Below, piece after piece: positions 4,363-55,008 of a DNA stretch of 64,000 bases. Made by a program: the position numbers and the translations under genes. The stretch's first letter is position 1; each line of letters begins with the position of its first letter. Origin of the DNA: an uncultured Ruminococcus sp. (GTDB lineage: Bacteria; Bacillota; Clostridia; Oscillospirales; Acutalibacteraceae); NCBI GenBank assembly GCA_902798755.1, contig CADBYC010000003.1, positions 35,807 through 99,806 of the forward strand, in the 5' to 3' direction. The notes beneath the pieces were generated by a model. The model saw only the letters and a program-made list of their open reading frames with translations, was not told the origin of the DNA and did not search any database.

Positions 4363-4633
4363 TTTTCTCTCCTAAAACTATTTGTTTTTATAATTTTATC
4401 ATGATTCGATTATATTCTCTATAATTAGACAACATTTGTCCTAGAGAAAAACACATCTGTTTCTTGTGCAATTAGCAAAGTAATTCTTAAACAAAGTTGT
4501 TAACATAATCGGATAAACATAGTATATGAAATTATCATCCATATCAAACTTCAGCAGCAGAAAGAGCGCGCCCCCAAAAAAATGAGAGCAAACTGATCTA
4601 TAACTGTTTTTACATTATAGTCGATTATTTTTT

Positions 4634-4658
4634 GTTTCCAACTTGACAACAGCAGGCG
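4634..4658. repeat. Diverged copy of island boundary repeat (possible attachment site)
   Basis: The 25 bases here match the core of the 37-bp repeat found at 15947-15983 and 19371-19407 with one mismatch (TTTCC versus TTCCC), in the same orientation. Its presence between gene modules supports stacked insertions using one site. Confidence 0.6.
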
Positions 4659-4784
4659 GTATTATATCCTCCGGTTTTTTCCAATGCTTCGGATATAGCA
4701 TCCTCTCCATTTTCAAATATTTGCATCGTTTTCGGAATAACTAATGTCAAATGCTTCTTTTTGTTCCGAAATCGGAATATTCAA

Positions 4785-4813
4785 TTGACTTTTGATAGAT
4801 AATATTTTATAAT
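4785..4813 (+). promoter_or_regulatory. Sigma-A-type promoter of the DUF4143-type ATPase gene
   Basis: TTGACT at 4785-4790 and TATAAT at 4808-4813 are separated by 17 bases. Just upstream lies the dyad TTCCGA-AA-TCGGAA (4764-4777), a possible operator. Confidence 0.6.
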
Positions 4814-4845
4814 GATTTTATTATAGAAAGAAAGGAAAAGCGCTA

Positions 4846-6069
4846 GTGGTACAACGAAGAGAATACTTAAATCAACTCAAACAATGGAAAGATGAAAAGG
4901 TAATTAAAGTCATTACCGGGCTGAGGCGTTGTGGCAAGTCTACTCTTTTACAAATGTTTCGAGATCATCTGGAATCTTCCGGAATACTTCCTGAACAAAT
5001 CATCTTCATCAATTTTGAAGATATAGAATTTGAAAACCTTCTGGATTATAAAAAGCTTTATCAATACATCTGTGACAGACTCGTTCCCGATAAGATGAAC
5101 TATATCTTTCTTGATGAAATACAAGCTGTTTCTGATTATCAGAGGGCGGTCGATAGTTTGTACCTTAAAGAAAACACTGATATTTATATCACAGGCTCAA
5201 ACGCATACTTACTATCCGGTGAGTTAGCGACACTGCTGTCCGGCAGGTACGTAGAGATCAATATGCTTCCTTTATCGTTTGCTGAGTACTGTGAATTAGT
5301 GAGCGGAAATGATAAAGAATCATTATTTGCAGAATATATGCGTTTTGGTTCTCTTCCGTATATTGCTTCTTTAGATCCTGTGTCGGAAAAAGCAGACATC
5401 TACCTGGAAGGGATATACAACACCATAATAATTAAAGATATCGAGCTTCGTCAACAACGAAAAGAGCGCGACCCGAATAAGCGAAAAGTAACCGATACCA
5501 CTCTTCTCAGGAACATTTCGAAATTCTTGGCAAATTCTATCGGCAGTCCTGTTTCCATAAAAAGCATTGCTAACTATATCAGCTCAAACGTCAGACCTAT
5601 TTCCCAGAATACGGTCGCTGATTATGTTGAAGCTTTAGTAGAACCATATGTGTTTTACCCGATAGAGCGATACGACGTGTTTGGAAAGAATCTTTTAAAA
5701 CAGAATTGCAAGTATTATATCGTCGACCTGGGAATCAGACGACATTTGCTGTCGCGAAGCAGATATGATCTTGGATTCTCTCTAGAAAACCTTGTGTGTT
5801 TAGAGTTGCTCCGCAGAGGATATTCAGTGAATGTCGGCAAAGTCGGGTCTGCAGAAGTTGACTTTGTCGCAAAAAAGAGCGACCAGACAGAATACTATCA
5901 GGTCACAGCGTCAATGGTAGATGAATCAACCTTTGATCGTGAAATATCCCCCTTAAAATCCATCTCTGATAATTATCCTAAAACGATCCTCACTCTCGAT
6001 CGTCTGTCCCTTGGTAATTACGAAGGGATTCTTGTAAAAAATGCAATCGACTGGTTATTGGATAAATAG
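4846..6069 (+). CDS. AAA_14/DUF4143-type ATPase
   Basis: This 407-residue protein has an N-terminal P-loop ATPase of the AAA_14 type: Walker A GLRRCGKST (25-33) and Walker B YIFLDEIQ (about 86-93), followed by the ITGSN sensor segment. The C-terminal DUF4143-like part ends in a restriction-nuclease-like fold with an AEVDFVAKK strand, but the usual ExK is replaced by YYQVT, as in one branch of the family, so nuclease activity is doubtful. The start is a GTG with an AAAGGAAA ribosome site 6-7 bases upstream. It stands alone with its own promoter. Members of this family are common, often horizontally acquired, and have no settled function. Confidence 0.85.
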   Translation: MVQRREYLNQLKQWKDEKVIKVITGLRRCGKSTLLQMFRDHLESSGILPEQIIFINFEDIEFENLLDYKKLYQYICDRLVPDKMNYIFLDEIQAVSDYQRAVDSLYLKENTDIYITGSNAYLLSGELATLLSGRYVEINMLPLSFAEYCELVSGNDKESLFAEYMRFGSLPYIASLDPVSEKADIYLEGIYNTIIIKDIELRQQRKERDPNKRKVTDTTLLRNISKFLANSIGSPVSIKSIANYISSNVRPISQNTVADYVEALVEPYVFYPIERYDVFGKNLLKQNCKYYIVDLGIRRHLLSRSRYDLGFSLENLVCLELLRRGYSVNVGKVGSAEVDFVAKKSDQTEYYQVTASMVDESTFDREISPLKSISDNYPKTILTLDRLSLGNYEGILVKNAIDWLLDK

Positions 6070-6292
6070 TGCTTATGAAACTTGTTTATCCTGATTATAT
6101 TTCTTCACTGATTGATTTTTTACACTTAGTTATTATAACGTTAATCAAATTTGTAGAGATGAATCCTTCGGATTTATATACAGCTTTGGATTTATGTGAT
6201 TTACACATCGTCAATAAATAGAAATCTCATCCTACGTTAGATTATTTTTCTTGCTGCATAAAGTGTTTATCTATTTGTTGCTGCTCAGCTAA

Positions 6293-6481
6293 TCAAGATT
6301 CGTCAATCAAATCCTCTTTCTTCAAACGCGAGCGTATCGCGCCTTGAGTTCTTCTGTGAATCTCAGTTAATTCTTTAATATTCATTCCGCTCATGAATTC
6401 AGTCTTTGATTGATCGATCTCCGGATTATATATCTTGATTTCGGCTTTTATGTCGCCATCTAATATTAGTAAATTATTCAT
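6293..6481 (-). CDS. Small protein with helix-turn-helix-like C-terminus (uncertain)
   Basis: A 62-residue frame divergent from the XRE gene. Its C-terminal half (IKELTEIHRRTQGAIRSRL) looks like the short DNA-binding helix motif often seen at the end of larger accessory proteins. No ribosome binding site is evident upstream of the ATG, and the start lies within the palindrome that probably regulates the XRE gene. It may be a remnant of a larger gene rather than an expressed protein. Confidence 0.35.
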   Translation of the reverse strand: MNNLLILDGDIKAEIKIYNPEIDQSKTEFMSGMNIKELTEIHRRTQGAIRSRLKKEDLIDES

Positions 6482-6517
6482 TTACTAAATTGAATAAAAT
6501 CTTAACTTTAGTAAATG
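6479..6517. promoter_or_regulatory. Inverted-repeat operator upstream of XRE regulator
   Basis: A perfect 11-bp inverted repeat, CATTTACTAAA (6479-6489) and TTTAGTAAATG (6507-6517), sits just upstream of the -35 box of the XRE gene. A related half site (TAGTAAAT) lies at 6467-6474. It is the natural candidate for autorepression by the XRE protein. Confidence 0.55.
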
Positions 6518-6522
6518 ATATA

Positions 6523-6551
6523 TTGACACAAGCCGCATTTAACAATATAAT
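6523..6551 (+). promoter_or_regulatory. Consensus sigma-A promoter of the XRE-ImmA operon
   Basis: A perfect TTGACA (6523-6528), a 17-base spacer and a perfect TATAAT (6546-6551) precede the XRE gene; an AAGGAGG ribosome site follows at 6561-6567. Confidence 0.85.
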
Positions 6552-6575
6552 AAATTATAGAAGGAGGTGCTAAAT

Positions 6576-6953
6576 ATGATTGACATGAATATCATCGTTG
6601 CCAAGAACATCAGCAACGCACTAAAAGCGGTTGGAAAGAAGCAATCCGAGCTTGCCGAGGCTCTCGGCTTTTCTAAGCAAATAGTCAGCAATATGCTTTC
6701 CGGTTCACGTTCAATCAACGCACTTGAGCTAAAAAGAATAGCAGACTTCTGTAATGTGAGTATGGAAAGCCTTGTTAAGCTGCCGGAGCAGCCAATCGAA
6801 ACAAATGTTGTTCGTGCATTTATGGGACAGGTTAAGACACAAAATGCAAAAGATGGAATCGAAATTGCCGATAAACTGATTGATATGTATTTGTTTCATG
6901 CGCGTGTGCACGATAGTTATATCATAGGAATGACAGAACGGAGCAGTCTGTAA
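6576..6953 (+). CDS. XRE-family transcriptional regulator
   Basis: A 125-residue protein with an N-terminal lambda-repressor-type helix-turn-helix (KKQSELAEALGFSKQIVSNM and following SRSINALELKRIA). The longest frame starts at a GTG at 6567 inside the ribosome site AAGGAGG; the ATG at 6576, 8 bases after that site, is preferred. Its stop overlaps the ATG of the ImmA/IrrE-like protease by one base (TAATG), so both are one transcript. In this family pair the protease relieves repression by cleaving the regulator. The 11-bp inverted repeat upstream is the likely binding site. Confidence 0.88.
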   Translation: MIDMNIIVAKNISNALKAVGKKQSELAEALGFSKQIVSNMLSGSRSINALELKRIADFCNVSMESLVKLPEQPIETNVVRAFMGQVKTQNAKDGIEIADKLIDMYLFHARVHDSYIIGMTERSSL

Positions 6954-7774
6954 TGAACAAAGTACTTGAGAACAGTCTTTTTCAAATAAATCCCGACCGC
7001 TTTCAGAAATTAAGACGGTATGTCGGTGAATTCAATACATCTTATAACGGGAACAACATCATACAAGACGATATATTTATTATTGTGCGTAATTATGCCA
7101 AGAGAAACGGAAAGCATATAGAGTTGTTTCGTCTTCCGGTATACGATGAGGATTTTTGCGCCTTTACCTGTGTCAGAGAAGGAAAAATCTTTACTGTGAT
7201 AAACTCATATCTCCCTATCTGCAAACAAATTTTTGCCGCAGGTCATGAATTGTATCATATATGGCGTTATGTTTCAGATTCCGACGACTCTTTGCCGTTA
7301 AGCGGTTCTTTTCTTACCGCTGATAATATGGATGAAGAAACAGCTAAAAACGAAGACAATGAAGCTAACGCCTTTTCCGCACTGTTGCTTGCTCCTAAAA
7401 GCGCGATCACTGAACAAATAGAAATATATGATCTTGGTCAAAAGGAATTCGATTTGGACGATGTTATCCGATTAATGGATGTGTTTGCAATCCCGTTTAA
7501 GGCGATGGTCTTACGTTTATATGAAGAAAAAATAATAGACGCAAAACGAGCCGATTATCTTCTCGAAAAAGGGTCCGTCGACAATCAGAAACATTCTATG
7601 AGAAGACAAAACACCGCTTTACGCTGGCAAAAGCGTACCGAAGATATAGCGGATATCGGTACACTACATTCATTGATTCAGGATAATATGGAAGCAGGAT
7701 GCCTTCCGAAGCAAAGAATCGAAGAAGATATTCAATTTTTGGAAGACAATAACATCTGGGACTTTGAAGAGTGA
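6953..7774 (+). CDS. ImmA/IrrE-family metallo-endopeptidase
   Basis: A 273-residue protein with the zinc-protease signature HELYH (98-102) and a downstream EANAFSALLLAP stretch (from about residue 137) that supplies the third zinc ligand, as in ImmA/IrrE (COG2856). It has no signal peptide, so it acts in the cytoplasm. It is coupled to the preceding XRE gene and probably cleaves that regulator in response to a signal such as DNA damage or an incoming element. The C-terminal 90 residues are charged and of unknown role. A third, frameshifted gene begins 8 bases downstream and looks like the operon's output gene. Confidence 0.88.
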   Translation: MNKVLENSLFQINPDRFQKLRRYVGEFNTSYNGNNIIQDDIFIIVRNYAKRNGKHIELFRLPVYDEDFCAFTCVREGKIFTVINSYLPICKQIFAAGHELYHIWRYVSDSDDSLPLSGSFLTADNMDEETAKNEDNEANAFSALLLAPKSAITEQIEIYDLGQKEFDLDDVIRLMDVFAIPFKAMVLRLYEEKIIDAKRADYLLEKGSVDNQKHSMRRQNTALRWQKRTEDIADIGTLHSLIQDNMEAGCLPKQRIEEDIQFLEDNNIWDFEE

Positions 7775-7782
7775 GGCGCATT

Positions 7783-8329
7783 ATGGAACAAGACAAAAGA
7801 TGTGCCATGCTGGACGCCGATTTTATCTCTAAACTATATGAAAGCAATCAGATGATAGTCCGCATACTCAGTATCGCTGATTTCAATTTTTGTCTATCAT
7901 AAACAAACAGGCATTGAGTTGAGCAGACATAATCACCAAGCGCTTCAATGGTTGAACACAAATACCGACATAACTGTTTATTCGGATCGTGATCTGATTC
8001 AGCAAATGTTGGAACTATTCAATATATCTGCCTATACATATTATGCTGATATGCTGCGCAGAAGCTGTGACATTTTTTCTCAGGGCTTCTATAATCAATA
8101 CTATAATAAAATCATTAATAAATCCCTCGATAAAGATTTTTCTCTTTATCGAGGGATTTATTGTATGTCAACTCAAAGAACACATTTTTCGTCTTCGGAG
8201 GGTTTGCTGTTAATACAACCTATCGGTCACATTAAGCCGATCCCCAAGGTGTACAAAGGAATCGACTCCGACCTTGCGCGGGATAATCTTGAAAACGATA
8301 TCCCCAACGCAAACTTGCAAGATTACTAA
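7783..8329 (+). pseudogene. Frameshifted third gene of the XRE-ImmA operon (PIN-like N-terminus)
   Basis: The ATG at 7783 opens a 39-codon frame (MEQDKRCAMLDADFISKLYE...) that ends at a TAA near 7901. Removing one T from the TTTTT run near 7890 joins it without interruption (FNFVYHKQTGIELSRHN) to the frame that continues to 8329. The joined product would be about 181 residues; its beginning (MLDADFIS) is like the first strand of PIN-type nuclease domains, but that is a weak call. The distal part contains a 19-bp perfect hairpin (8117-8162), suggesting that the true 3' end was replaced. It could be a decayed toxin-like output gene or an assembly error of one base. Confidence 0.55.
8117..8162. 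repeat. Perfect 19-bp inverted repeat hairpin
   Basis: Arms at 8117-8135 and 8144-8162 are perfectly complementary with an 8-base loop, centred on CCCTCGATAAAG. It lies inside the distal part of the frameshifted gene. It is not followed by a clear T-run on the plus strand. Confidence 0.7.
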
Positions 8330-8355
8330 ATTATTACGGTTGCAATAATATTGTT

Positions 8356-8904
8356 TTACTGCATATCATCGTTTGTAAATACATATTCGCTGACCTCGTC
8401 ATCGATTTCTTCGCGGATGCACCAGAACGGACTGTAGGTGCCTCCGTCACCGTCTGCGAACACGCCGATCAGATGAACAGATAAATCGCTGTCAAGCAGT
8501 TCTGCCCAATACCGTTCGAATATCCGCCAGACTCCGTACCGATTCATCGTCCTATCCTGTTCCATCGCAATGCTCGGATGCTGACCGAGGGACAGACCAA
8601 AATGACCTGCGTCTCTATCCTTTGACCCTGCTTTACGGTACTCCGGATGAGATAGTCTGAGTGGTTTTGTGGGTGATACACGGCACAAATAGCAATCAAT
8701 AAACGCGATATTGCCCTGAATATCTGTGAGATAAAGATTTTGATCATATACATAGGCTGTTTCGCTTTGTAAGGCTGTGGGATCCACATGATCTTCAAGA
8801 TTCATTCGCTTGATCTCTTTGATATCCAGATAATCCGGGACCAAGCGGCCTCTTTTCAAAACGAGCTCCACGCCCGGCTCCATGACGTCGTCAAATATCA
8901 GCAT
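8356..8904 (-). CDS. Small protein resembling DNA/RNA non-specific endonucleases
   Basis: A 182-residue protein with no signal peptide. Its C-terminal half has RDAGHFG (His101), an Asn in TMNRYG (Asn121) and WRIFERYWAELL (126-137) followed by a V.L.GVF strand, an order that resembles the DRGH...N...E layout of the DNA/RNA non-specific endonuclease superfamily. That is inferred from motifs. The gene begins 26 bases after the stop of the helicase gene and has a strong AGGAGG site, so the two are one operon. A helicase-nuclease pair inside an island points towards nucleic-acid processing or defence. The alternative is an uncharacterised island protein. Confidence 0.6.
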   Translation of the reverse strand: MLIFDDVMEPGVELVLKRGRLVPDYLDIKEIKRMNLEDHVDPTALQSETAYVYDQNLYLTDIQGNIAFIDCYLCRVSPTKPLRLSHPEYRKAGSKDRDAGHFGLSLGQHPSIAMEQDRTMNRYGVWRIFERYWAELLDSDLSVHLIGVFADGDGGTYSPFWCIREEIDDEVSEYVFTNDDMQ

Positions 8905-8930
8905 AACACTTCCCTCCTAACTTACAGTGC

Positions 8931-11900
8931 CTAAAACCGGTTATCTTGAACATAACGGCATAGCAATCCCTTAGCAGAAGCAGAGCTGCCGTTTTGCAGG
9001 CAGTCAAAGCTGCCAAACACCCAGAACGCATCCTTTGCTCGAGAAACGGCAACATTCATTAATTCCGTATGGTTGTCAATGAAAAAACCGCTTTCATTTG
9101 CTCCGTATGTAGTGGAAAAGATAATAATATTTCGTTCTGCACCTTGAAACGTATGGACCGTACCGACGGTTACCGGAACCGTCTGAAAAGCAAAAGCCTT
9201 GCGCAGCTGCGTTCTGATCTCATTCGCCTGCGCCTTAAACGGAGTGATGACCGCTATGATATCTTCTTTTCTTATGTTTTTGTCGGTATTGCCGTAAGCG
9301 TCACACAGCTCTCCGAAATGAGTCGCGATCCATAGTGCGATCTCTTTCGCTTCTTTCACGTTCTTTCGGCTGGAACCGACCTTCTCGGAGTTCGGCGTCG
9401 GTATATCATGACAGCCGATGATCGGGTATTGCTTCATTTTTTCCGGACGTTTCGTGTCTTTTAACCCGCTGCCGCGCTTCGGTTCCAGCCTGTTCTGATA
9501 CACCAAATCATTGCAGTATCGGATGATCTCATCGTAACACCGTCGATGCTCGCTGAGAAACAGTCCTTTATAAGTATTGCCTTTATATGCTTTGCTATAG
9601 GGACAAGCTCCGAGCGCAAGCTTCATTACACTGGACTGTGAGGCATTTAATCCGCGTTTCTCCAGTAAAGAAAAATCCTCTTGTTGCTGAATCACACCGC
9701 AGTCCAAAGCGAGCGCCATATCCAATTGACGGCATAACCCCCATACCGGCGGGATCTGAAACTCATCCCCAACCACGATCGCTTTCTTTGCCAGCGCAAA
9801 TGACGCCGCAGCAACCTCCGGTGATGTTTGTCCCGCCTCATCAACGATCAACAAATCGATATAGTTCATCAAATAACGATCGTTATACATTTTCATTTTT
9901 GACGGCAGCATATAGAATGTCATTACAAAACACGGTGACAGCATTGACAATTGGCGATACTTTTTTGTCAACACCGGATAGGTCGTCTTCCAAATATCTG
10001 TCTCTTTGATCGGCTCCTCTTCCAGCCAAACACATTCATAATAATGAATCGCCAGCCAAAACGACCGCCACCTTAAAGAAACATCTAAATACTCGTTTAT
10101 TTCTTTAGTTGTTGATTCACTGATGAAAGCGTTGATTGATACTTCTTTCCCATCTTTTTTAGGATGAACGCATCCTGACGCTTCGATTATCTCATTGCCG
10201 ATCATAACAGCTTCGTTCAACAAAGATTCCGTTTCCTTTGCTCGATCATTAAGCCCTTTGATCTGAACGTCAAAGTTTAAACTCTTTTCTTGTAATTCTT
10301 TGATCCGACTGTCTGTAGCTTGGATTCGGTTTTGATAAAAGGCCAACATATCCTTTGTTGTATGCGCTGACGAAGCTTCTGTGATTTCGCTCTCCGTTTT
10401 AAACGCCTGCGTCCAGCGGATGATCTTTCTGTTAAAAGATGGGACAAAACCGAACATACGGATATACCAGGAAACCTGCGATTGAAAACTCTTCTCCCAC
10501 TCTTCCATGCGCAGGCACAGGCTCTGTCGCTTATTCAAAGCCGCTACCCGGAGAGCGTCGATCTCCTGCTTTTTATTCTCAATAGCATGTATTTCCTGAG
10601 CGTTCTGATAAAGATAGTCCTTTACGAAAAGACCGTTTGTCGCTCTCATAATATCGGCGTGCTTGTTGAGAAAACGACGTTTCAAGCTTTCACTCTTAGT
10701 CAGCTCGTGATAAACCGCATCCCTGCATTCTGCAATATCAGTCAAACAATGTCCGAAAAATGCTTCACAACAACATAGCATCTTCTCCTTTGACTCTTTT
10801 CGAACATCTTCCTGATTTATTGTATTGATCATATCAGTATCAATCTGATACTTCTTCGATTGTCCTTTTTTAGAAGAGGAAGGGAAATAGGTTGCCAAGC
10901 TGTCGGCCGCCGTGACCCATCTTAATTCCAGACCGGATGGATCGGTAGACCTTGGCTGAGAAAAGGAATCGATTATATTTGTTACAGCCTGATTATTGGT
11001 TGATGACGCAACGATGATCGGCGCCTCTGCTTTCATTAATGCGCGCTTTGTGACACAATCCGCGACAACAGATTGTAAAAGCGTTGTTTTACCTGTTCCC
11101 GGAGGTCCGCTGACAGCCAGTATCTCTCCGTCTGCTAAAAGATTCAAATGATCAAGCGATTCGCGCTGCGACTCCGCCAGAGGATAGCGGTTGCCCATTT
11201 GACCGGAATGATTCAACATTGCTTTCAGCGGATCATCTGTCAGCGGGCGACCAGTCGCCTCACCAAGAGCTGTAAAACGTCTATATAAGGGCAGCTCATT
11301 TATACTATGTTGAGTCAGAATAGCGTCATAGAGTTTTAGAATATGCTGAGAAGCAACAACGGTAGTGTCATTGATCATGTAACATCTCTTATCAAACTTA
11401 AGCACAGCGTCATTTGGGACTGCCAAGCTTGAGATATCCTCATGAGTCACCGTTTGATACATTAAACAGATATAGTCCCAATAATCGTTCCAACTCTCGA
11501 TTTTTCGGCGTTCCGCCGCTGTTTGTGAAAGAAAAACGTCTACATCCTCTGCTTTACCGATACTCAACTCCGCCTCTATCATCGGTTCCATATATTCTCT
11601 TACAAACCACGGGAGTTTTCCCTCGTTTTTGGCAAGGATTCCTCCTTCACAGAGCTTTGCGGGAACAAAGAATACGCAAGTCAACTCTCTCGGCTTCTGC
11701 GAATCGCTAACACCTTCTTCATAAGGAGATAACAAGTTCTTTAATGCAATCAGTATTTCATATTCTCTTGTGGGGAGTTCCTTATCAGACCGGTGTTTTT
11801 CGCTGTCCTTCAACAGTTTTTCATAGTAATCTTCAAAGCCTTCTCCGGTTGCGATATGATTCATATCGGTAATAAGCAGTGAATCGTCATTCAGTTCTAT

Positions 11901-11954
11901 GCTCTGACTTGATTGAGCTGCTAACGCCTTTCGCAAATATTTGGTTACCTTCAT
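8931..11954 (-). CDS. Superfamily 1 DNA/RNA helicase (Upf1/Dna2-like, AAA_11/AAA_12)
   Basis: A 1007-residue protein with the full set of SF1B-type motifs: a Q-motif-like YPLAESQRESLDHL (257-270), Walker A GPPGTGKT (283-290), a DEAG box (LLIVDEAGQTSPE) followed by VVGDEFQIPPVW, and the C-terminal VGTVHTFQGAERNIIIFS and MNVAVSRAKDAFWVFGS motifs. The roughly 430 residues between Walker A and the DEAG box are long and coiled-coil-like, as in large AAA_11 helicases. There is no fused nuclease; the small nuclease-like gene downstream may supply it. It likely unwinds or translocates on DNA or RNA in an island-encoded system. Confidence 0.88.
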   Translation of the reverse strand: MKVTKYLRKALAAQSSQSIELNDDSLLITDMNHIATGEGFEDYYEKLLKDSEKHRSDKELPTREYEILIALKNLLSPYEEGVSDSQKPRELTCVFFVPAKLCEGGILAKNEGKLPWFVREYMEPMIEAELSIGKAEDVDVFLSQTAAERRKIESWNDYWDYICLMYQTVTHEDISSLAVPNDAVLKFDKRCYMINDTTVVASQHILKLYDAILTQHSINELPLYRRFTALGEATGRPLTDDPLKAMLNHSGQMGNRYPLAESQRESLDHLNLLADGEILAVSGPPGTGKTTLLQSVVADCVTKRALMKAEAPIIVASSTNNQAVTNIIDSFSQPRSTDPSGLELRWVTAADSLATYFPSSSKKGQSKKYQIDTDMINTINQEDVRKESKEKMLCCCEAFFGHCLTDIAECRDAVYHELTKSESLKRRFLNKHADIMRATNGLFVKDYLYQNAQEIHAIENKKQEIDALRVAALNKRQSLCLRMEEWEKSFQSQVSWYIRMFGFVPSFNRKIIRWTQAFKTESEITEASSAHTTKDMLAFYQNRIQATDSRIKELQEKSLNFDVQIKGLNDRAKETESLLNEAVMIGNEIIEASGCVHPKKDGKEVSINAFISESTTKEINEYLDVSLRWRSFWLAIHYYECVWLEEEPIKETDIWKTTYPVLTKKYRQLSMLSPCFVMTFYMLPSKMKMYNDRYLMNYIDLLIVDEAGQTSPEVAAASFALAKKAIVVGDEFQIPPVWGLCRQLDMALALDCGVIQQQEDFSLLEKRGLNASQSSVMKLALGACPYSKAYKGNTYKGLFLSEHRRCYDEIIRYCNDLVYQNRLEPKRGSGLKDTKRPEKMKQYPIIGCHDIPTPNSEKVGSSRKNVKEAKEIALWIATHFGELCDAYGNTDKNIRKEDIIAVITPFKAQANEIRTQLRKAFAFQTVPVTVGTVHTFQGAERNIIIFSTTYGANESGFFIDNHTELMNVAVSRAKDAFWVFGSFDCLQNGSSASAKGLLCRYVQDNRF

Positions 11955-12328: not shown

Positions 12329-12496
12329 AATCTAGATGACTTTGCATTATATTCTACTCTATCACTTGCTTCTTTATTTCTAATACTATTCATACTCGTT
12401 CTATCTTTCCATAAAAATTATTACTAATCTGCCATCACCGCTGCACTTGTTTGAAAACCCTTTCCATAGTACACAAAAACAAAGAATCCGGAACAA

Positions 12497-13783
12497 TCAG
12501 TTCTTTAACGCTGTTATCGGTACTACGAATACTCCATCAGGACGTCGGTAAGCAGCTGTTGCCATTCCGCAAATCACACATAATACCTTAGGAGGTACCC
12601 CTTTGGGATCTTTAGCGATATCGTTCTCGATTTTGATCAAATTAGCTGCTGCATCATCGATCTGATTAGCGCCGAGCTTGATTTCAAAGGCACACCAGTT
12701 CCCGTCACTCAGTTCAATTACTGTGTCGATCTCGCGACTCTGATAGTCCTGATAGTGAAATGCTTTTGCACCAAAAGTTTCTGCATAGATCCTCAGATCT
12801 CTTTCACACAGTGCTTCAAATAAAAAACCAAATGTGTGCAGATCATTCAAAAGCCGCTCTTGATTGGCATTTAACAGCGCACAAGCAAGAGCAGGATCAC
12901 AAAAATGTCTTTTCTCTGCTTGCTTAACTCTGACAGAAGAACGAATATTTTCCGAGAAAGGCAAGAGATTATCCGTCAGAAACAATCGATCAAACACATC
13001 CAAGTAGGTTGCGATCGTATCCCTGTCGATTATCTCATCATCTGTTTCCTGAATATCTCTCAATAAACGACTATTCGTTGCTGTTGTACTTTCGTTACGG
13101 GCAAGCGATCTTAACAACAACCTTATTTTATGCTTGTTATACTTTGTACTATCCAACCTTTGAATATCGTCATCTAGTATCGCGCTGATATACGACTTCG
13201 GCAGTATATCAGCATTTTCTCTGCTGACATCGATATTCCCGGGCCATCCGCCTCTAACCACATAGTATATCAGTTGCTTAATATCTACATCACCTGTTAA
13301 GCACGGAGAAAGTTCTCCTCGACAAAGCGCTTCAAGCGATACCTGACCGGAAGAATCCCCCGACTCATACAGTGACATCGTACGCATACGCAATTTGCTG
13401 ATTCTTCCTGCACCGCTGTGTAAAATACCTTTCCTTTTCGGTGTAGATGAGCCGGTCAGTATAAATTGAGCGCTTTTCGCTCTCTGATCGACAGCATATC
13501 GTACTGCATCCCAAATCGATGGAACCTCTTGCCATTCATCGATCAGGCGAGGTGTCGCTCCTTCCAAAATGGTTGCCGGAGCTATCTCCGCCAGTTGTCT
13601 GTTTTGAAAGTTATTTGCAGGGTCCCCAATCAGATATTCACTGTTACAGTGATAGGAAGATGTCCACGTCTTCCCGCACCATTTCGGCCCTTCTACACAA
13701 ACAGCTCCAACGGCAGTCAAATATTGTTCTACGCGAGAGTCGATCATTCTGGGCTTATACTTTTCCTTGTTTGCAATGCTCAT
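12497..13783 (-). CDS. AAA_14/DUF4143-type ATPase
   Basis: The preferred start is the ATG at 13783 (MSIANKEKYKPRM), 428 residues. A longer frame from 13825 would have to start inside the -10 box of the promoter at 13814-13842. Visible motifs are Walker A GPKWCGKTW, the Walker B variant RLIDEWQEVP, FILTGSS, and a C-terminal nuclease-like fold with EIDTVIELSDGNWCAFEIKLG, in which the D...ExK residues are kept. Unlike the plus-strand family member at 4846, this branch may retain catalytic residues. It is a single gene between the remnant at 12073-12328 and a small hypothetical gene. Function unknown; these ATPases typically sit in variable regions. Confidence 0.85.
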   Translation of the reverse strand: MSIANKEKYKPRMIDSRVEQYLTAVGAVCVEGPKWCGKTWTSSYHCNSEYLIGDPANNFQNRQLAEIAPATILEGATPRLIDEWQEVPSIWDAVRYAVDQRAKSAQFILTGSSTPKRKGILHSGAGRISKLRMRTMSLYESGDSSGQVSLEALCRGELSPCLTGDVDIKQLIYYVVRGGWPGNIDVSRENADILPKSYISAILDDDIQRLDSTKYNKHKIRLLLRSLARNESTTATNSRLLRDIQETDDEIIDRDTIATYLDVFDRLFLTDNLLPFSENIRSSVRVKQAEKRHFCDPALACALLNANQERLLNDLHTFGFLFEALCERDLRIYAETFGAKAFHYQDYQSREIDTVIELSDGNWCAFEIKLGANQIDDAAANLIKIENDIAKDPKGVPPKVLCVICGMATAAYRRPDGVFVVPITALKN

Positions 13784-13813
13784 AGTTAACCTCACATTTG
13801 TCATACTGTTAAC

Positions 13814-13842
13814 ATTATACTTCATTCCGCAGAATTAATCAA
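13814..13842 (-). promoter_or_regulatory. Sigma-A promoter of DUF4143 ATPase gene; decides its start
   Basis: On the minus strand TTGATT (13837-13842), a 17-base spacer and TATAAT (13814-13819) precede the gene. Because the longer frame begins inside this promoter, translation probably begins at 13783. Confidence 0.65.
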
Positions 13843-14063
13843 TAAAATTACGCAAAATTATTTGAAAATATTCCGCAAGATTTCCATATTATATTCCTCA
13901 TCATTTTAATAACAAAACACACATCGTGTATTGTGTTTTCTCTTTTAATAAATCGAACAATTTATTACAATCTAAATATATTTGAATTTCATTAATCTGG
14001 ATTCGCATTGCATATTAGCAGAAAAGCCGACAGGATACCCCATCGACTTTTTCATGATCGTTA

Positions 14064-14300
14064 TTATTTTGCGTTTGGAATCGCCAACAACTCCCGAGCT
14101 CTTTTTTTGATATGATATTCGATCGCCTGCAAGCGCCCCTCGGGCAGATTGATCGACGGGTGTCTGGTAAAGGTGAAATTCACCAACCGTCTCAGCTGTG
14201 TCTTTTGTTTACTTCCCATGATCGCTCTGCATACATCCTCAAAGGAAATACAATAAGGCGTAGTCCTTGTCTTAGCGTACGCATCGAGGTCATCCGGCAT
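14064..14300 (-). CDS. Small hypothetical protein
   Basis: A 78-residue protein (ATG at 14300, with GAGGTG six bases upstream; a GTG at 14309 is possible but lies in the ribosome site). It is basic in its C-terminal half (YHIKKRARELLAIPNAK) and could bind nucleic acid, but no motif is recognised. Its 3' end and downstream flank are duplicated in degenerate form at about 18290-18460, so the gene belongs to the same mobile material as the 15.9-19.4 kb modules. Confidence 0.55.
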   Translation of the reverse strand: MPDDLDAYAKTRTTPYCISFEDVCRAIMGSKQKTQLRRLVNFTFTRHPSINLPEGRLQAIEYHIKKRARELLAIPNAK

Positions 14301-14483
14301 AGCAATCACCTCGTTTCATGATGTTATCATATTTGATAATACTTGTCTATACTGTCAATGTGCTATGAATGCTATCAGTCACTTTTCCTTCTATCTGATT
14401 CTCTATCGGAATCAATCATCGCAAACTGTAAAATGACCGGTTTTTATCATGTTGCTCGGTGAGACAGCGCCTTGCTGTCATCA

Positions 14484-15833: not shown

Positions 15834-15840
15834 GGCAATC

Positions 15841-15888
15841 ACACTTTTCAATATATTTTTGAGGTATTATACTACACTTTTCAATATA
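15841..15888 (-). promoter_or_regulatory. Direct-repeat operator upstream of DUF4143 ATPase
   Basis: Two identical 15-bp copies of TATATTGAAAAGTGT (minus strand) occupy 15841-15855 and 15874-15888. They start 33 bp apart, about three helical turns, and lie between the promoter and the start codon. Confidence 0.6.
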
Positions 15889-15889
15889 A

Positions 15890-15918
15890 ATGATACCCTA
15901 AAAAATACACTTTGTCAA
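15890..15918 (-). promoter_or_regulatory. Sigma-A promoter of DUF4143 ATPase
   Basis: TTGACA (15913-15918), a 17-base spacer and TATCAT (15890-15895) on the minus strand precede the gene that starts at 15833. Confidence 0.6.
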
Positions 15919-15946
15919 CAAGGCTGTTTAATTTATTGTCATTGAA

Positions 15947-15983
15947 AATCCCGAATTGTTCCCAACTTGACAACAGCAGGTGC
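15947..15983. repeat. 37-bp island boundary repeat, left copy
   Basis: This sequence is identical over 37 bp, same orientation, to 19371-19407, where it forms the break inside spoVAD. The core CCCAACTTGACAACAGCAGG is also present with one mismatch at 4634-4658. It looks like an attachment site left by repeated integration. Confidence 0.75.
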
Positions 15984-16156
15984 TCTTGTTGTCCCAATAT
16001 TTTCCATTTTCTCTGTATTTTATGTGTTCAAGATAATAATCCATACAAAAGTACTGCTCAGAAAACGATATGATAATCAAAGAAACCTGAAATTATAACC
16101 ACTCCAAAAAATCTCAAATGATTATTCTTCTATATACCCAATGAATAATATCAGAC
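15984..16156. other. Short gap with one copy of a 33-bp flanking repeat
   Basis: Bases 16053-16085 match 18242-18274 with one mismatch (core ACTGCTCAGAAAACGATATG), same orientation. The two copies bracket the HTH-AAA-nuclease gene. Nothing else was seen. Confidence 0.6.
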
Positions 16157-18019
16157 CTATCCCATACATATCTCAACGTTCTTTCCGCTGAAAGCTACCC
16201 CGTATTTAACGATAGTTTCAACACCTCTTCTATGCATTTCAGTATCATATCCACGAGTATTGATTTGATTCAATGCCTCCTGAGCAAGTGAATTTAAACT
16301 TAGCGATTCGCAATCCTTCTCATGCTTTAGCTCAAATAATATTCCGGGACGCTTTGCTTCCTTCGGCTCTAACTGAATGTCAAACCTTCCTTCCCCTGAT
16401 TCTCTGTTTGAAGATACATAGTATTGATCGTCAAACATCGCGCAAATACCGAGTAATAGTCCATGAAAAAACAGTTCTTTGGTTGTATCATAACAGCTGG
16501 CAGATTGCAGCAATAGATTTCTTATATGCTTTTGAAGTTTTACGATATCATTCGTATAAATAGCCTCTTGAATTCCTGTTGCGGTAGACTGACTCACAAA
16601 TCCTTCCAGCTTTTGCAAAATCTCCTTGTTATATACAGTCTTGATCTCCTTATTAGGCAGTGATACCTCGCACATATAATCGCCGTTAGGAGAAATATCC
16701 GCGTTTTCTGCTTTTAAGTAACCCGCCACTAACAAAAAACTGTAAATAGTAGAAGGATTGTTTTTTATCTGAGGATATATTACTCCGGTATCAATCAACG
16801 CAGTGAATTTTTCACCTTGTAACAGTTGCTCCAATCTTTCATATATCTCTTCATCTGCGTTCCCAATCACTTCGGAAATGATATCATTGCTTCCGGTTGA
16901 CTGCCAAAAAGGTTTGGGCTTACAGCGATTACCAAAATAATTAATTACCGACCATGGATTAAAAATCTCTGTATCTCCAAAACGATAACCATCATACCAT
17001 TCGCCGATCTCTTTTATTTTGTCCGATGCATAATAGTATTCAGCCATTGCTTCAACCTCTTTCCGAGTAAACCCAAAGTATTGACTGTATTTATCATCGA
17101 TCACAGAATTGGTTACCAAATTATTTAATCCACTGAAAATACTTTCCTTTGCTACACGAAGAATTCCTGTCAAGAAGCCATATGCCAAATAACTGTTATC
17201 CTTCAATCCACCAGAAAATAGATTTCTCATAAAATCTATGACTTGATCATAAAAATTCTTCGAGTGACCCTGCTGGATCGGAACATCATATTCATCTATG
17301 ATGATAATAACATTTTCGCCGTAATGCTTTGAAAGCATACGGGACAAAACATCAAAAGATCTGGATAAGCCCACCTTATCCAGCTTTTGATCAACCGCGT
17401 CTTGATAATACCTTTTATCGCTCTCACTGCATTTTGGGGAATCAATCAATTCATGATGCCTATCAAATTCATTTGCGATCGTCGCTTTCAGCATTTCAAA
17501 TGTGTCTTCCCAGTTATCGAACTTGATGTCTTTAAAGGACACATAAATAACAGGAAACTTTCCCTGATAAGAACGGTACTGTTCTCCACAGTTCCATATT
17601 TTTTTATCTTGAAAAAATATGGATGTATCCTCATCGCTTAATTCAAAAAACACACGTAGCATATCCATATTCAGAGTTTTTCCAAAGCGCCGCGGGCGGG
17701 TGAACAACGATACCTTAGGACGCTCATCCAGAAAATCTTTTATCAACATAGTCTTATCAATATAGTAGTACTGAGTTGACGCAAGACGATATTCCGAAAT
17801 ACCGATAGGAAGCGGAAGCAAAGTGCCAAAGTGTATATCTCCCTCAGGCTGTTTTTTTCGACGCTTATCCATAGGTTTTACCGCATTAATTGGAATAAGC
17901 CATTCTTTTTTGCCTTTTATGGCGCCGGGTATTTCACCATTACGACACATTTGAGCTACTCGGGTGCTTGTAAGTTTCCACTTACCGGCTGCTTCTTTTG
18001 CCGATATCATTCCATCCAT
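16157..18019 (-). CDS. HTH-fused AAA-ATPase-like / PD-(D/E)XK protein
   Basis: A 620-residue protein. Residues 1-50 form an excisionase/MerR-type helix-turn-helix (SAKEAAGKWKLTSTRVAQMC, then KGKKEWLIP). Residues 65-330 are an AAA-ATPase-like domain (PF09820 type) with the P-loop variant TRPRRFGKT (107-115) and Walker B VIIIIDEYDVPI. The C-terminal part has ESGEGRFDIQLEPKEAKRPG followed by ILFELKHEK, the D...ExK core of the PD-(D/E)XK domain usual in this family. The start has a GGAGG site. The N-terminal DNA-binding fusion is not standard for the family and suggests autoregulation through the TTTCGAAAATAT array just upstream. Function of the family is unknown; it is abundant in gut Bacteroidetes and Clostridia. 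Confidence 0.87.
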   Translation of the reverse strand: MDGMISAKEAAGKWKLTSTRVAQMCRNGEIPGAIKGKKEWLIPINAVKPMDKRRKKQPEGDIHFGTLLPLPIGISEYRLASTQYYYIDKTMLIKDFLDERPKVSLFTRPRRFGKTLNMDMLRVFFELSDEDTSIFFQDKKIWNCGEQYRSYQGKFPVIYVSFKDIKFDNWEDTFEMLKATIANEFDRHHELIDSPKCSESDKRYYQDAVDQKLDKVGLSRSFDVLSRMLSKHYGENVIIIIDEYDVPIQQGHSKNFYDQVIDFMRNLFSGGLKDNSYLAYGFLTGILRVAKESIFSGLNNLVTNSVIDDKYSQYFGFTRKEVEAMAEYYYASDKIKEIGEWYDGYRFGDTEIFNPWSVINYFGNRCKPKPFWQSTGSNDIISEVIGNADEEIYERLEQLLQGEKFTALIDTGVIYPQIKNNPSTIYSFLLVAGYLKAENADISPNGDYMCEVSLPNKEIKTVYNKEILQKLEGFVSQSTATGIQEAIYTNDIVKLQKHIRNLLLQSASCYDTTKELFFHGLLLGICAMFDDQYYVSSNRESGEGRFDIQLEPKEAKRPGILFELKHEKDCESLSLNSLAQEALNQINTRGYDTEMHRRGVETIVKYGVAFSGKNVEICMG

Positions 18020-18048
18020 TTCTATTCCTCCAAAAATATGTATATATT

Positions 18049-18077
18049 ATTATAACTTTATTTTCGAAAATATGCAA
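18049..18077 (-). promoter_or_regulatory. Promoter of the HTH-AAA gene, overlapped by operator
   Basis: On the minus strand TTGCAT (18072-18077), 17 bases, and TATAAT (18049-18054). The spacer contains the first TTTCGAAAATAT operator copy. Confidence 0.6.
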
Positions 18078-18115
18078 CCGATTTTCGAAAATATATACTC
18101 TTGTTTCGAAAATAT
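18062..18115. promoter_or_regulatory. Three-copy TTTCGAAAATAT operator array
   Basis: Identical 12-bp copies begin at 18062, 18083 and 18104, exactly 21 bp (two helical turns) apart; each holds the dyad TTTCGAAA. The first lies within the promoter spacer of the HTH-AAA gene. Confidence 0.75.
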
Positions 18116-18616
18116 ATATCTTCATATGAAACTTTATGCTTCTTTTAACAACATCCTGATAATAGCTTTGTGAAAATGAGACTATATAATGATCCAGAGA
18201 CAGATACTTTTTCTTCCATATTAGTGCTTTCTTTAGAAAGCACTGCTCAGAAAACGATATGTTAATCAAAGAAAAACTACTTCTCGAAAGATATAATATT
18301 ACATCTAAATATAAATATAATTGAATATCTTGCTTCTGGATTTTGCATTGCGTATCGAAAGAAAGCCGACGGGATAACCCATCGACTCTTTTTCATGATC
18401 GTTATTATTTGGCATTTGGAAGCGCTAACATCTCGAACTCTTTTTTGGATATGGTAAACCATTATCACATATGTCGAAGCAAAGGAAATAGTTTATGATA
18501 CTATGCAACTCTTTGAAGTTTCAAATCCTCTCAAATCTTATACAAATGGATAAAGTTAGCATCTTCTTACAGAACTCAAAAAACAATTTTTCACTCTATT
18601 CGGCGCTTGGTACTTA
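18116..18616. other. Gene-free region with duplicated fragments
   Basis: Bases 18242-18274 are the right copy of the 33-bp repeat that also lies at 16053-16085. Bases about 18290-18460 are a degenerate copy of 13965-14110, including the 3' end of the small gene at 14064-14300 (its last residues read LALPNAK here). No intact gene is visible, and no AbiEii-type toxin follows the AbiEi-like gene. Confidence 0.6.
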
Positions 18617-19258
18617 TCAACCATATCGCTCTTTACTGATTAATGCTTGGATCAGGCTTGTTCCTAAAATCTTTTTTGATACTGAGTCCGGGAAGTAAAT
18701 ACAATACTGATGGACAGCCGAGAAGGTAACATTATATTTTCTAATATAATCTTCAAGTCTGTTTATTGTCCATTTATTTCGATCGCTGATATTGATCAAT
18801 CTCACAGCTTCTAAGAAGCGAAGAACAGCTACATTAACCGCTGAGATTTCTGTCGGAGGCTTTATTAGGTAAATCTCCTTATCACCCAGTCTCACTTTCC
18901 TGCCTCTGGATTTTTCTTTGTTGGTAACTATAATCATCACATCAGGTTCACAATTTATCAGACCTAAAACCTTTAATAATTTATCACCCGAAACATATCC
19001 AAAAACTTTGCCGTCCCGCTCTATGTACTTCTCCCTAATAACTTTACTTACGTCAAGCTCTGAAATACTTTCCCGATTTTTTCTTGGACGGTAATATATC
19101 CCAGTCGCGTATCTTACTAATTGTCCTGACGCCGTCAACTCACTTAACTCATGGTCAATCCATTGCCGGGAACGGGTTGGATACATCTTGATAATGTCTT
19201 CAATAAAAATCGGCTCATTCACTTTTATTAGATCAAATAATTTTGGTTTCTCTCCCAT
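18617..19258 (-). CDS. AbiEi-like (DUF6088-type) antitoxin, orphan
   Basis: A 213-residue protein with an N-terminal winged helix (FIEDIIKMYPTRSRQWIDHELSELTASGQLVRYATGIYYRP split across its helices) and a C-terminal domain of the AbiEi type. In the type IV AbiE systems this protein represses the operon and counteracts a nucleotidyltransferase toxin encoded just downstream. Here no toxin gene follows: the downstream 500 bases hold only repeats. It has its own strong promoter and a GAGGCGA ribosome site. It may be an orphan regulator, or the remaining half of a broken toxin-antitoxin pair. Confidence 0.75.
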   Translation of the reverse strand: MGEKPKLFDLIKVNEPIFIEDIIKMYPTRSRQWIDHELSELTASGQLVRYATGIYYRPRKNRESISELDVSKVIREKYIERDGKVFGYVSGDKLLKVLGLINCEPDVMIIVTNKEKSRGRKVRLGDKEIYLIKPPTEISAVNVAVLRFLEAVRLINISDRNKWTINRLEDYIRKYNVTFSAVHQYCIYFPDSVSKKILGTSLIQALISKERYG

Positions 19259-19278
19259 TTCATCGCCTCTTTGATCGA

Positions 19279-19308
19279 ATTATAAGATATTTTGACTATT
19301 CTTGTCAA
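19279..19308 (-). promoter_or_regulatory. Promoter of the AbiEi-like gene
   Basis: TTGACA (19303-19308), an 18-base spacer and TATAAT (19279-19284) on the minus strand. A short dyad (GACAAGAATAGTC) sits next to the -35 box and could be an autoregulatory site. Confidence 0.7.
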
Positions 19309-19353
19309 TATTTCTCGGATATACAAAAATTTAATCATCAAAATATGGCTTAT

Positions 19354-20058
19354 CTAAGCCATTATTGAGGAATCCCGAATTGTTCCCAACTTGACAACAG
19401 CAGGTGCCATAGCGGCGCCCATATTGTTCTGATCGGTGATCTGAAAGTCGATGATCCTACCGAGACGTGCGGAATGGAGATACGGTTTTCGCGAAATATG
19501 TGATCGAGGATCTTCGGGAATACTCTTACCGTCTCCGCTTTCTAACACACACGCCCCCGATCCGGTAACGGTCCACTGGGCTGTCGGGGGCCGCTGAGAG
19601 CCATATTCGAGTGGGAAGCGATACTGGCGCTCTGCCGTGCAGTAATGGGAAGACGCGGCGCAGACCGCGCGCTTTGCCGCACCGCTTTCGATTGCGATAG
19701 CGGACAGAATCATCGACAGCGCCATGGTAGAGCACGCCCCGTATACGCCCGCGTAAGGGATATGATAAGATCGCATCGCAAAGCTGCTCGCCACGCATTG
19801 ATTCAGCAGATCGCCGCAGCAGGCAAAGTCGATCTGCTCCTGCGTAAAGTCCCCTTTATTCAGTGCGACCCGAACGGCAGTGTTCATCAGCTCGCTTTCC
19901 GCCTTCTCAAAAGTTTCCTTGCCGACATAGCTGTCGTGAATGATACGGTCAAAATAGTCGCGCAGAGGACCTTCTCCCTCTTTCTTGCCGACTACAGCGG
20001 CACAGCTCGCAATATATGGCACATTCTCGAATATCAGATTACCATCTTTATTTCTCAT
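19354..20058 (-). pseudogene. spoVAD: Truncated stage V sporulation protein AD
   Basis: The first 220 or so residues match SpoVAD, the thiolase-fold protein that binds and helps import dipicolinic acid into the forespore: EGPLRDYFD, CGDLLNQC, YGACSTMALSM, ASSHY, then PPTAQWTVTGSGACVLESG and ITDQNNMGAAMAPA. SpoVAD is normally about 340 residues. Here the reading changes at AMAPA to VVKLGTIRDSSIMA and stops, exactly where the 37-bp boundary repeat begins. The C-terminal third is missing from the window. A 9-bp inverted repeat (GTGAATACT/AGTATTCAC, 20059-20097) surrounds its ribosome site. The gene stands alone, not next to spoVAC. Either insertion killed it or excision of the island restores it. 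Confidence 0.85.
19371..19407. repeat. 37-bp island boundary repeat, right copy (inside spoVAD)
   Basis: Perfect direct repeat of 15947-15983. It marks the transition from the A+T-rich island to the chromosomal spoVAD coding sequence and creates the aberrant SpoVAD tail. Confidence 0.8.
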
Positions 20059-55007: not shown

Positions 55008-55008
55008 T

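What the first reader, a model, noticed from the sequence alone, without database searches (positions are those of the whole stretch)
4631..20058. Stacked island integrated inside spoVAD at a repeated 37-bp site
Seen: spoVAD coding sequence ends abruptly after AMAPA, exactly at a 37-bp sequence (19371-19407) that recurs perfectly at 15947-15983 and with one core mismatch at 4634-4658, all in one orientation. The segments between copies (about 11.3 and 3.4 kb) are A+T-rich accessory modules. Known: several sporulation genes of Bacillus and Clostridia (sigK, spsM, spoVFB, gerE) carry intervening elements excised by recombinases. Inferred: spoVAD is an integration site used repeatedly, so the organism is either spo-negative or carries an excisable spoVAD element. 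No recombinase is in the window; it may lie to the left.
Basis: partly seen in the sequence, partly recalled or inferred. Interest (0 to 1): 0.7.

Follow-up and report, generated by a model that had tools for sequence, protein, structure and literature searches.

The report
Mobile island splitting forespore gene spoVAD
A family of mobile DNA islands in gut bacteria cuts a gene that is needed inside the developing spore, and its control signals suggest that it removes itself from the future spore's own chromosome, whereas the spore-gene interruptions described in the papers we could read are removed in the mother cell, which dies.

Summary
In the window spoVAD stops at an attachment-site core. 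The island runs left out of the window; its large serine recombinase (LSR) lies 33 kb left of it, 945 bp before the contig end. The 3' third of spoVAD was not found in this 90%-complete genome. In the same genus 25 of 100 genomes have spoVAD matches that break off there (22 with island ends read); LSRs of this kind were found in 14 of those 25 and 0 of the other 75. Among named genomes a spoVAD fragment adjoins 27 of 35 related LSRs (>=41% identity) and 0 of 45 below. Joining the ends restores spoVAD in frame in 13 of 13 elements, and the joined circle makes a TTGACA-17-TATAAT-like promoter. A small DUF6870-like gene, a candidate excision factor, precedes the LSR in 41 of 43 loci. In this LSR group it carries a sigma-F (forespore) type promoter in 29 of 40 loci, against 1 of 27 other DUF6870-LSR pairs. 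Split halves are under purifying selection, and some elements descend with their host. Best reading: an intervening element excised in the forespore, i.e. the germ line, then reintegrated or lost after germination. This is inferred from sequence; no circle or spore was observed.

The parts
19405..20058 (-). spoVAD 5' part (profile positions 5-207 of 329), cut after Ala-Met-Ala-Pro-(Ala)
   Evidence: PF07451 E 1.4e-82; ORF list; cut point shared with relatives
19371..19407 (-). Junction: element arm 1 (TTGTTCCCAACTTGACAACAGCA on + strand) plus core; central dinucleotide GG/CC at 19403-19404
   Evidence: arms of the same two kinds in 13 of 13 elements of relatives with both ends joined
20085..20117 (-). 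Forespore-type promoter-like sequence in front of spoVAD (GTGAATACTA at the -10), read by eye
   Evidence: upstream regions of spoVAD in the genus printed
15947..15983 (-). Identical arm 1 + core copy, not followed by spoVAD or by arm 2: half site, possible remnant of an earlier insertion or deletion
4634..4658 (-). Arm 1 copy with one mismatch, core lost after GCAGG
18617..19258 (-). DUF6088 protein next to the junction; similar DNA flanks the junction in relatives G035 and G091
   Evidence: PF19570; blastn C3:54698-55278 and 54475-55294
16157..18019 (-). AAA-ATPase-like / PDDEXK_9 protein, island cargo
   Evidence: PF09820, PF08011
14484..15851 (-). AAA_14 / DUF4143 ATPase, cargo
12497..13825 (-). 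AAA_14 / DUF4143 ATPase, cargo
8931..11954 (-). Helicase resembling Mokosh MkoC (defence), cargo
   Evidence: PADLOC MkoC E 7e-259
6953..7774 (+). IrrE/ImmA-like peptidase (PDC-M69B model), cargo
   Evidence: PF06114, PADLOC
4846..6069 (+). AAA_14 / DUF4143 ATPase, cargo
1..4633 (.). Island continues leftwards out of the window to the contig end at C3:1 (Wadjet JetABCD C3:8845-15471; DUF6870-like gene C3:2722-2994; sigma-F-like site C3:2962-2989; LSR C3:946-2685, all outside the window)

Best explanation
This is one member of a family of site-specific genomic islands that use a conserved point in spoVAD as their attachment site. A large serine recombinase (LSR) integrates the island. During sporulation a small DUF6870 protein, made early in the forespore from a sigma-F-type promoter, is proposed to act as the directionality factor that makes the LSR excise the island. 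This restores spoVAD in the forespore, before sigma-G transcribes it. The excised circle would stay in the spore. After germination the LSR alone would reintegrate it; otherwise the island is lost. Shown from sequence: cut point, att anatomy, LSR linkage, in-frame rejoining, purifying selection on the split halves, the DUF6870-LSR gene pair, and the enrichment of a sigma-F-like promoter in this LSR group over other LSR elements. Inferred: DUF6870 as directionality factor, excision in the forespore, reintegration.
For: Cut point: 25 of 100 genus genomes, island arms read in 22. LSR of this kind in 14 of 100 genomes, all 14 among the 25. Named genomes: spoVAD fragment within the held DNA of 27 of 35 LSR loci at >=41% identity, 0 of 45 below. 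Joining the ends: 13 of 13 restore spoVAD in frame; the circle carries TTGACA-17-TATAAT in 6 of 6 type B, TTGACA-17-TATACT in 6 of 6 type A, 10/12 in L071. DUF6870-like ORF before the LSR in 41 of 43, by a profile built mostly from these loci; Pfam DUF6870 over cut-off in 4 of 5 scanned. A sigma-F matrix trained only on 28 spoIIR promoters scores >=10 in 29 of 40 loci and 1 of 27 control DUF6870-LSR pairs; without eight loci whose held DNA shows no spoVAD it is 23 of 32. Sigma-E and sigma-K motifs are not enriched. SpoVAD-C dN/dS 0.03-0.06 in L076/L077/L078/L081, where LSR and spoVAD divergence agree. SpoIIR in 30 of 30, SpoVAC/AEB in 37 of 37 chosen genomes. Contigs end exactly in the core in G093, G024, G049 and G014.
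Against: No assembled circle junction in 100 genus genomes, and none recognised in viral contigs. 11 of 25 split genomes show no LSR of this kind, so some insertions may be fixed; two of these, G027 and G081, give the highest spoVAD-C dN/dS listed, 0.31. G049 has a stop soon after the core in its 3' part. SASP was not found in G000. Promoters are predictions; no expression data. DUF6870-like ORFs also stand before 27 of 41 control LSRs; the function is unknown, the G000 copy is below Pfam's cut-off (17.6 against 24.4 bits), and the model has no PDB match. Sigma-F scores are below 10 in 11 of 40 loci, and below 7 in L071, L073 and L080. Close intact relatives of carriers lack the LSR.
Confidence: 0.6

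Rival explanations
1. A selfish site-specific island that simply breaks spoVAD; carriers lose DPA uptake or sporulation, and lineages survive by chance loss of the island.
For: Close relatives differ in carriage (G017/G012, G001/G097); recent transfer between distant hosts (L066/L067: LSR 100%, spoVAD-C 81%; L064/L068: 93% against 52%); 11 of 25 split genomes lack the LSR; G027-G081 spoVAD-C dN/dS 0.31; G049's 3' part is broken.
Against: Split halves keep low dN/dS in pairs that inherited the LSR vertically; split genomes tested keep SpoIIR and SpoVAC/AEB; the candidate excision-factor gene carries a sporulation-type promoter in this LSR group and not in other LSR elements.
Confidence: 0.22
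2. Excision is regulated, but occurs in the mother cell, in both compartments, or before division; the forespore-like promoter match is misleading, or SpoVAD is made elsewhere in these bacteria.
For: The excisions whose compartment is given in the passages read are in the mother cell (PMC4191935, PMC5025042, PMC6957869). Sigma-F and sigma-G elements resemble each other (PMC3789822, passage).
Against: Sigma-E and sigma-K motifs are not enriched; the matrix is trained on spoIIR of the same genus; spoVAD itself has a forespore-type promoter here by eye and is sigma-G-controlled in C. difficile (PMC3789822, table passage).
Confidence: 0.12
3. SpoVAD works as two separate pieces, so no excision is needed.
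For: Open reading frames of both halves in most genomes where both are assembled; in type B an in-frame TTG lies at the start of the 3' part.
Against: That TTG is part of the conserved TTGACA of the att arm and no ribosome site is evident; the type A ends read have no such start; the 3' part lies up to 74 kb away (G012).
Confidence: 0.04
4. Assembly or binning artefact.
For: Most named genomes are metagenome-assembled.
Against: Both halves on one contig in G012, G037, G063 and L071; same cut point and arms in independent assemblies.
Confidence: 0.01

Closest known systems
skin element of Clostridioides difficile in sigK (CD1231 LSR + CD1234 RDF)
   Same: LSR element inside a sporulation gene; LSR transcribed from a sigma-A promoter, small RDF under sporulation control (PMC5025042, passages). 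Here too a sigma-A-like site precedes the LSR (26 of 41) and a sporulation-type site the small gene.
   Different: skin is excised in the terminal mother cell and its target is a mother-cell gene; here target and promoter are of forespore type. DUF6870 is the candidate factor; no relationship to CD1234 was tested.
SP-beta/spsM, gin/gerE, vfbin/spoVFB, yin/yabG intervening elements
   Same: Gene-splitting elements with serine recombinases, excised in sporulation (PMC4191935, PMC5595907, PMC10747680, PMC6957869; passages). gin is likewise a non-phage island.
   Different: The genes described there are expressed in the mother cell or act in its programme or in the spore envelope, and SP-beta excision was shown to spare the forespore genome (PMC4191935, passage). 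None is spoVAD.
Tn4451/Tn5397-type LSR transposons (TnpX, TndX; TnpV)
   Same: LSR; TnpV at the end of type B elements (two proteins scanned, PF14198 E 5e-21 and 2e-17); a promoter made at the circle junction (known to me for Tn4451; the title of Lyras and Rood 2000 was seen only in the reference list of PMC13023037).
   Different: Best plasmid LSR only 38% identical, TndX 35%; one fixed site in spoVAD; cargo of another kind.
SCC islands with Ccr recombinases
   Same: LSR-borne islands at one chromosomal gene (recalled).
   Different: CcrB model match 127 bits against a cut-off of 900; SCC sits at the end of its gene (recalled), here the gene is cut in the middle.
fdxN element with XisF (cyanobacterial heterocysts)
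   Same: LSR of related family (XisF model 99 and 107 bits, cut-off 375); developmental gene rearrangement (PMC6957869, passage).
   Different: Heterocysts are terminal cells (recalled); here the proposed cell is the germ line.
Regulated prophage excision from comK in Listeria
   Same: Excision in a lineage that is not terminally differentiated (PMC5025042, passage).
   Different: Prophage, not a sporulation gene; signal differs.

Membership tests
Large serine recombinase island | Resolvase, Recombinase and zinc-ribbon domains in one protein | tested here: met
   PF00239, PF07508, PF13408 all over cut-off in L014:946-2685
Large serine recombinase island | attP an imperfect palindrome about a central dinucleotide shared with attB | tested here: met
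   11-17 of 24 matches between arms about CC in 13 of 13; about 6 expected by chance
Large serine recombinase island | Recombinase acts on these sites | not testable with these tools
   only linkage: 14 of 14 genomes with the LSR are split
Sporulation-gene intervening element | Splits a sporulation gene so that excision restores the frame | tested here: met
   13 of 13; the window's own 3' part is not assembled
Sporulation-gene intervening element | Recombinase gene carried on the element | tested here: met
   both ends and LSR on one contig in G012, G037, G063, L071
Sporulation-gene intervening element | Excision observed in sporulation | not testable with these tools
   no circle junction found in assemblies
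Sporulation-gene intervening element | Excision factor under a sporulation sigma factor | tested here: inconclusive
   sigma-F-like site in front of DUF6870 in 29 of 40, controls 1 of 27; function of DUF6870 not shown
skin-type element (mother-cell excision) | Target and excision factor expressed in the mother cell | tested here: not met
   by predicted promoters only: forespore type at spoVAD (by eye) and DUF6870; sigma-E and sigma-K sites not enriched
Tn4451-type transposon | TnpV and LSR of the TnpX/TndX family | tested here: inconclusive
   TnpV in two type B elements scanned; LSR 35% to TndX
Prophage | Phage structural genes, or an LSR close to known phages | tested here: not met
   best-ranked phage LSR 37% identical, none of 547 records at 60% or more; no phage structural family among 19 island proteins of the own genome scanned with Pfam; not all island genes were scanned

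The most novel reading that the evidence does not exclude
A gene-intervening element that leaves the germ-line chromosome at every sporulation: sigma-F switches on its excision factor in the forespore, spoVAD is repaired in time for sigma-G, the spore stores the island as a circle, and after germination the vegetative recombinase, helped by a promoter that exists only on the circle, puts it back. Island carriage would then be renewed or lost at each spore generation.
Probability: 0.43. Interest if true: 0.92.

Novelty: new variant of a known kind. Interest (0 to 1): 0.82.

Why it matters
[quoted passage not shown] An element in a forespore gene breaks that rule. If the reading holds, these islands, one of which carries a Wadjet defence system, cycle between chromosome and circle with each spore generation. 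A testable link between sporulation and island gain or loss in gut bacteria would follow, and a proposed role for DUF6870.

Tried and rejected
Tyrosine recombinases: many in these genomes, but the gene linked to the junctions is an LSR. Prophage or plasmid origin: no LSR at 60% identity or more in 547 phage and 471 plasmid records with a match. Circle junctions: the genus-wide pattern hit 15 places in 11 of 100 genomes, none with the spoVAD arms by the printed matches; viral contigs gave 2 stretches for type B and 0 for type A; 9 of the 14 loci made were read further and look like ordinary promoters. Ancient vertical descent everywhere: rejected, close intact relatives lack the LSR and some LSRs moved recently. 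Mother-cell control: sigma-E/K motifs not enriched. LSR sigma-A promoter as a special feature: rejected, controls have it too (13 of 27). Fold of DUF6870: mean pLDDT 89.5, no PDB match with E <= 0.001. Stacking of three islands: the inner copies are half sites; left open. Label caveat: in the tree split rows not listed as type A were labelled B by default. By the ends read, type A are G000, G012, G023, G035, G037, G063, G091, G094, and A-like G049 and G004; G014, G024, G092 and G093 are undetermined and G050's end was not read.
Full report
1. What is in the window. The window is contig C3:35807-99806 of a draft genome of 2.44 Mb, 74 contigs, 90% complete. On the minus strand spoVAD reads ATGGCACC|TGC and then runs into TGTTGTCAAGTTGGGAACA, the reverse strand of the 37-bp repeat at 19371-19407. 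The repeat recurs exactly at 15947-15983 and partly at 4634-4658. PF07451 matches positions 5-207 of 329, and no other SpoVAD match was found in the genome.

2. The same cut elsewhere. Of 100 genomes of the genus (own one included), 92 have a SpoVAD match; in 25 the match stops or starts at about profile position 200-217. Island ends were read in 22 of the 25 (19 on the 5' side, and G004, G073, G027 on the 3' side). In G024 and G093 the contig ends in the core, so a split is not seen directly, and G050's end was not read. Both halves lie on one contig in G012 (74 kb apart), G037 (29 kb) and G063 (8 kb), and in named contig L071 (6.6 kb). In a class-wide draw of 293 genomes at least two (G222, G361) look split from their E-values; the match list was cut off, so this is a minimum. 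Named carriers are mostly MAGs titled Ruminococcus sp., Clostridia or Oscillospiraceae, many from ruminants.

3. The att sites. Two arms flank a core CACCTGC. Arm 1 is about TTCCxACTTGACAACAGCA, arm 2 about TTCxxxxTATACCATxxCA. In type A (window and relatives) arm 1 is on the 5' side of spoVAD; in type B it is on the 3' side. Joining the ends gives an imperfect palindrome about the dinucleotide CC, as expected for a large serine recombinase, with 11-17 of 24 arm positions matching in 13 of 13 elements. The arms are thus swapped about CC between types.

4. The recombinase. PF07508 was searched in 26 genomes (the 25 split ones and G014). In 11 of them (G005, G012, G023, G035, G037, G046, G063, G084, G086, G094, G097) an LSR gene lies within about 3 kb of a junction on the same contig; in G000 it is on the junction's contig, at C3:946-2685. 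The G000 protein is 92% identical to that of G012, where the 3' part of spoVAD starts 1.9 kb beyond the LSR; contig C3 ends 945 bp beyond it. Whole-genome protein searches at strict cut-offs (1e-130, 1e-150) found LSRs of this kind in 14 of 100 genomes, all 14 split and none of the other 75; in genomes with many candidates only the first 13-14 were scored. 11 of 25 split genomes show none.

5. Named genomes. A spoVAD fragment lies within the held DNA in 27 of the 35 loci at 41% identity or more and in 0 of 45 below. The eight without one are L055, L060, L065, L069, L075, L080, L082 and L083. This LSR clade looks dedicated to spoVAD.

6. Descent. LSR and SpoVAD-C distances correlate over 25 loci (Mantel r 0.77, 0 of 2000 permutations). 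In L076/L077/L078/L081 and L087/L130 synonymous divergence of the LSR (pS 0.43-0.62) is close to that of spoVAD-C (0.31-0.56), with dN/dS of spoVAD-C 0.03-0.06: vertical descent while the split gene stays under selection. Only 3' halves were measured there. L066/L067 (LSR 100%, spoVAD-C 81%) and L064/L068 (93% against 52%) show recent transfer. In the genus, split-split pairs have N-half dN/dS such as 0.086 (G000-G012) and 0.13 (G023-G063), up to 0.25 (G012-G094); intact pairs 0.06-0.24; for the 3' half G027-G081, both without LSR, reach 0.31. Against long residence: G017 and G001 are close, intact relatives of carriers G012 and G097 and have no such LSR.

7. Hosts look like spore formers. SpoIIR in 30 of 30 chosen genomes, SpoVAC/SpoVAEB twice in each of 37 of 37, SASP in 33 of 37 (missing in G000, G069, G043, G053). 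The sets mix split and intact genomes.

8. The small gene. A 60-90 aa ORF resembling DUF6870 lies before the LSR in 41 of 43 loci of this LSR group and 27 of 41 control LSR loci, by a profile built from 26 members of the group and one control. Of five scanned with Pfam four are DUF6870 over cut-off (E 1e-12 to 4e-20) and the G000 one is below it (E 0.004). No paper in the library uses that name. Its predicted fold (mean pLDDT 89.5) has no PDB match.

9. The forespore-type promoter. Eye reading of upstream regions gave GTATA-N15-GGxAAAAxC-like sites. A recalled B. subtilis sigma-F consensus reached 10 of 11 positions in 15 of 43 loci; shuffles 2.2 on average, maximum 4. As an independent test a matrix was built from 28 spoIIR promoters of the genus. 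The group set of 43 holds one entry per place, chosen by LSR similarity; L084 and L085 were left out for want of upstream DNA. The controls are 41 of the 45 loci below 41% identity. Score >=10: 31 of 43 (shuffles 4.8, maximum 9) against 5 of 41 controls (shuffles 5.5, maximum 11); Mann-Whitney p 8e-10. Restricted to loci with the small ORF: 29 of 40 against 1 of 27; >=14: 15 of 40 against 0 of 27. Leaving out the eight loci without a seen spoVAD fragment gives 23 of 32 (from the list). Loci are related, so p values are too small; but each of three LSR clusters at 60% identity holds high scorers. In 23 picked loci the site lies about 7-34 nt before the likely start of the small gene, often with a ribosome site between; the start is uncertain in L024, L039 and L075. 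In G000 the site is GACTA-N14-GCCAACACT at C3:2962-2989, score 14.7. Sigma-E and sigma-K motifs are not enriched; sigma-G is weakly so (18 of 43 against 10.2, maximum 17). The LSR has its own sigma-A-like site in 26 of 41 (shuffles 3.3), but controls do too (13 of 27). C. difficile skin has the same plan, constitutive LSR and compartment-specific factor, but in the mother cell (PMC5025042, passages).

10. The target is a forespore gene. In C. difficile spoVAC-AD-AE is listed in the sigma-G regulon (PMC3789822, table passage). In this genus spoVAD has upstream sites such as GCAGATAATA or GTGAATACTA (by eye). In G000 the SpoVAC/AEB genes lie on other contigs, C2 and C21.

11. The circle promoter. 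In all 13 joined circles TTGACA and a TATAAT-like box lie exactly 17 bp apart: 12 of 12 positions in six type B, 11 of 12 in six type A, 10 of 12 in L071. In the integrated state the two boxes are at opposite ends. In the two type B elements scanned the first gene behind it is TnpV. The LSR follows in only some (by position L073, G084, G086, G035, G094), so it is not a general switch for the LSR. A circle-made promoter is known for Tn4451 (title only, in the references of PMC13023037).

12. Signs of two states. In G093 the 5' contig stops in the core and overlaps by 55 bp a contig that reads on into intact spoVAD; contigs also end in the core in G024, G049 and G014. This is what an assembler does when both junctions are present, but strain mixtures do the same.

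13. Cargo. The G000 island has Wadjet JetABCD (C3:8845-15471), a Mokosh-like helicase, an IrrE-like peptidase, RecQ, Fic and AAA/DUF4143 ATPases. At the DNA level cargo differs largely between relatives; shared are the LSR module (G012, 82% over 3.9 kb), the DUF6088 end (G035, G091) and a few short stretches. G063 carries sugar-nucleotide genes by eye.

14. Judgement. That this is an LSR island family with spoVAD as attB: about 0.97. That excision restores spoVAD in sporulation: about 0.72. That it happens in the forespore: about 0.6. Not in print as far as searched: (open PMC papers only) listed no spoVAD interruption.

Noticed in passing
L014:8845-15471 (contig C3, left of the window): Complete Wadjet type I system (JetABCD) in the same island; with the Mokosh-like helicase at window 8931-11954 the island looks like a defence island.
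   Followed up: partly
L016:3500-12000 (G063 C12): The 8-kb spoVAD island of G063 carries, by eye, UDP-sugar epimerase/dehydrogenase-like genes and an endonuclease IV-like gene beside the LSR.
   Followed up: no
L066 and L067: LSR 100% identical at protein level between MAGs whose spoVAD 3' parts are only 81% identical: very recent transfer of a spoVAD island between species.
   Followed up: partly
G000 and relatives: These genomes are rich in large serine recombinases (11 in G000, 17 in G050 by PF07508); other genes may be split in the same way.
   Followed up: no
window 16048-16085 and 18237-18274; 14047-14093 and 18388-18434: Two further direct repeats, 95% and 89% alike, within the island.
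   Followed up: no
G024:C81, G046:C294, G087:C21 (L180, L176, L184): The same strong promoter-like sequence TTGACAAGTGCCGCCGGTTGCGTTATACT with conserved flanks in three species; it lacks the spoVAD arms.
   Followed up: partly
window 20171-21406 and 21966-23117, L014:7240-8439: Proteins of similar size that look alike upstream of spoVAD and inside the island; only the last was scanned (NTP_transf_5).
   Followed up: no
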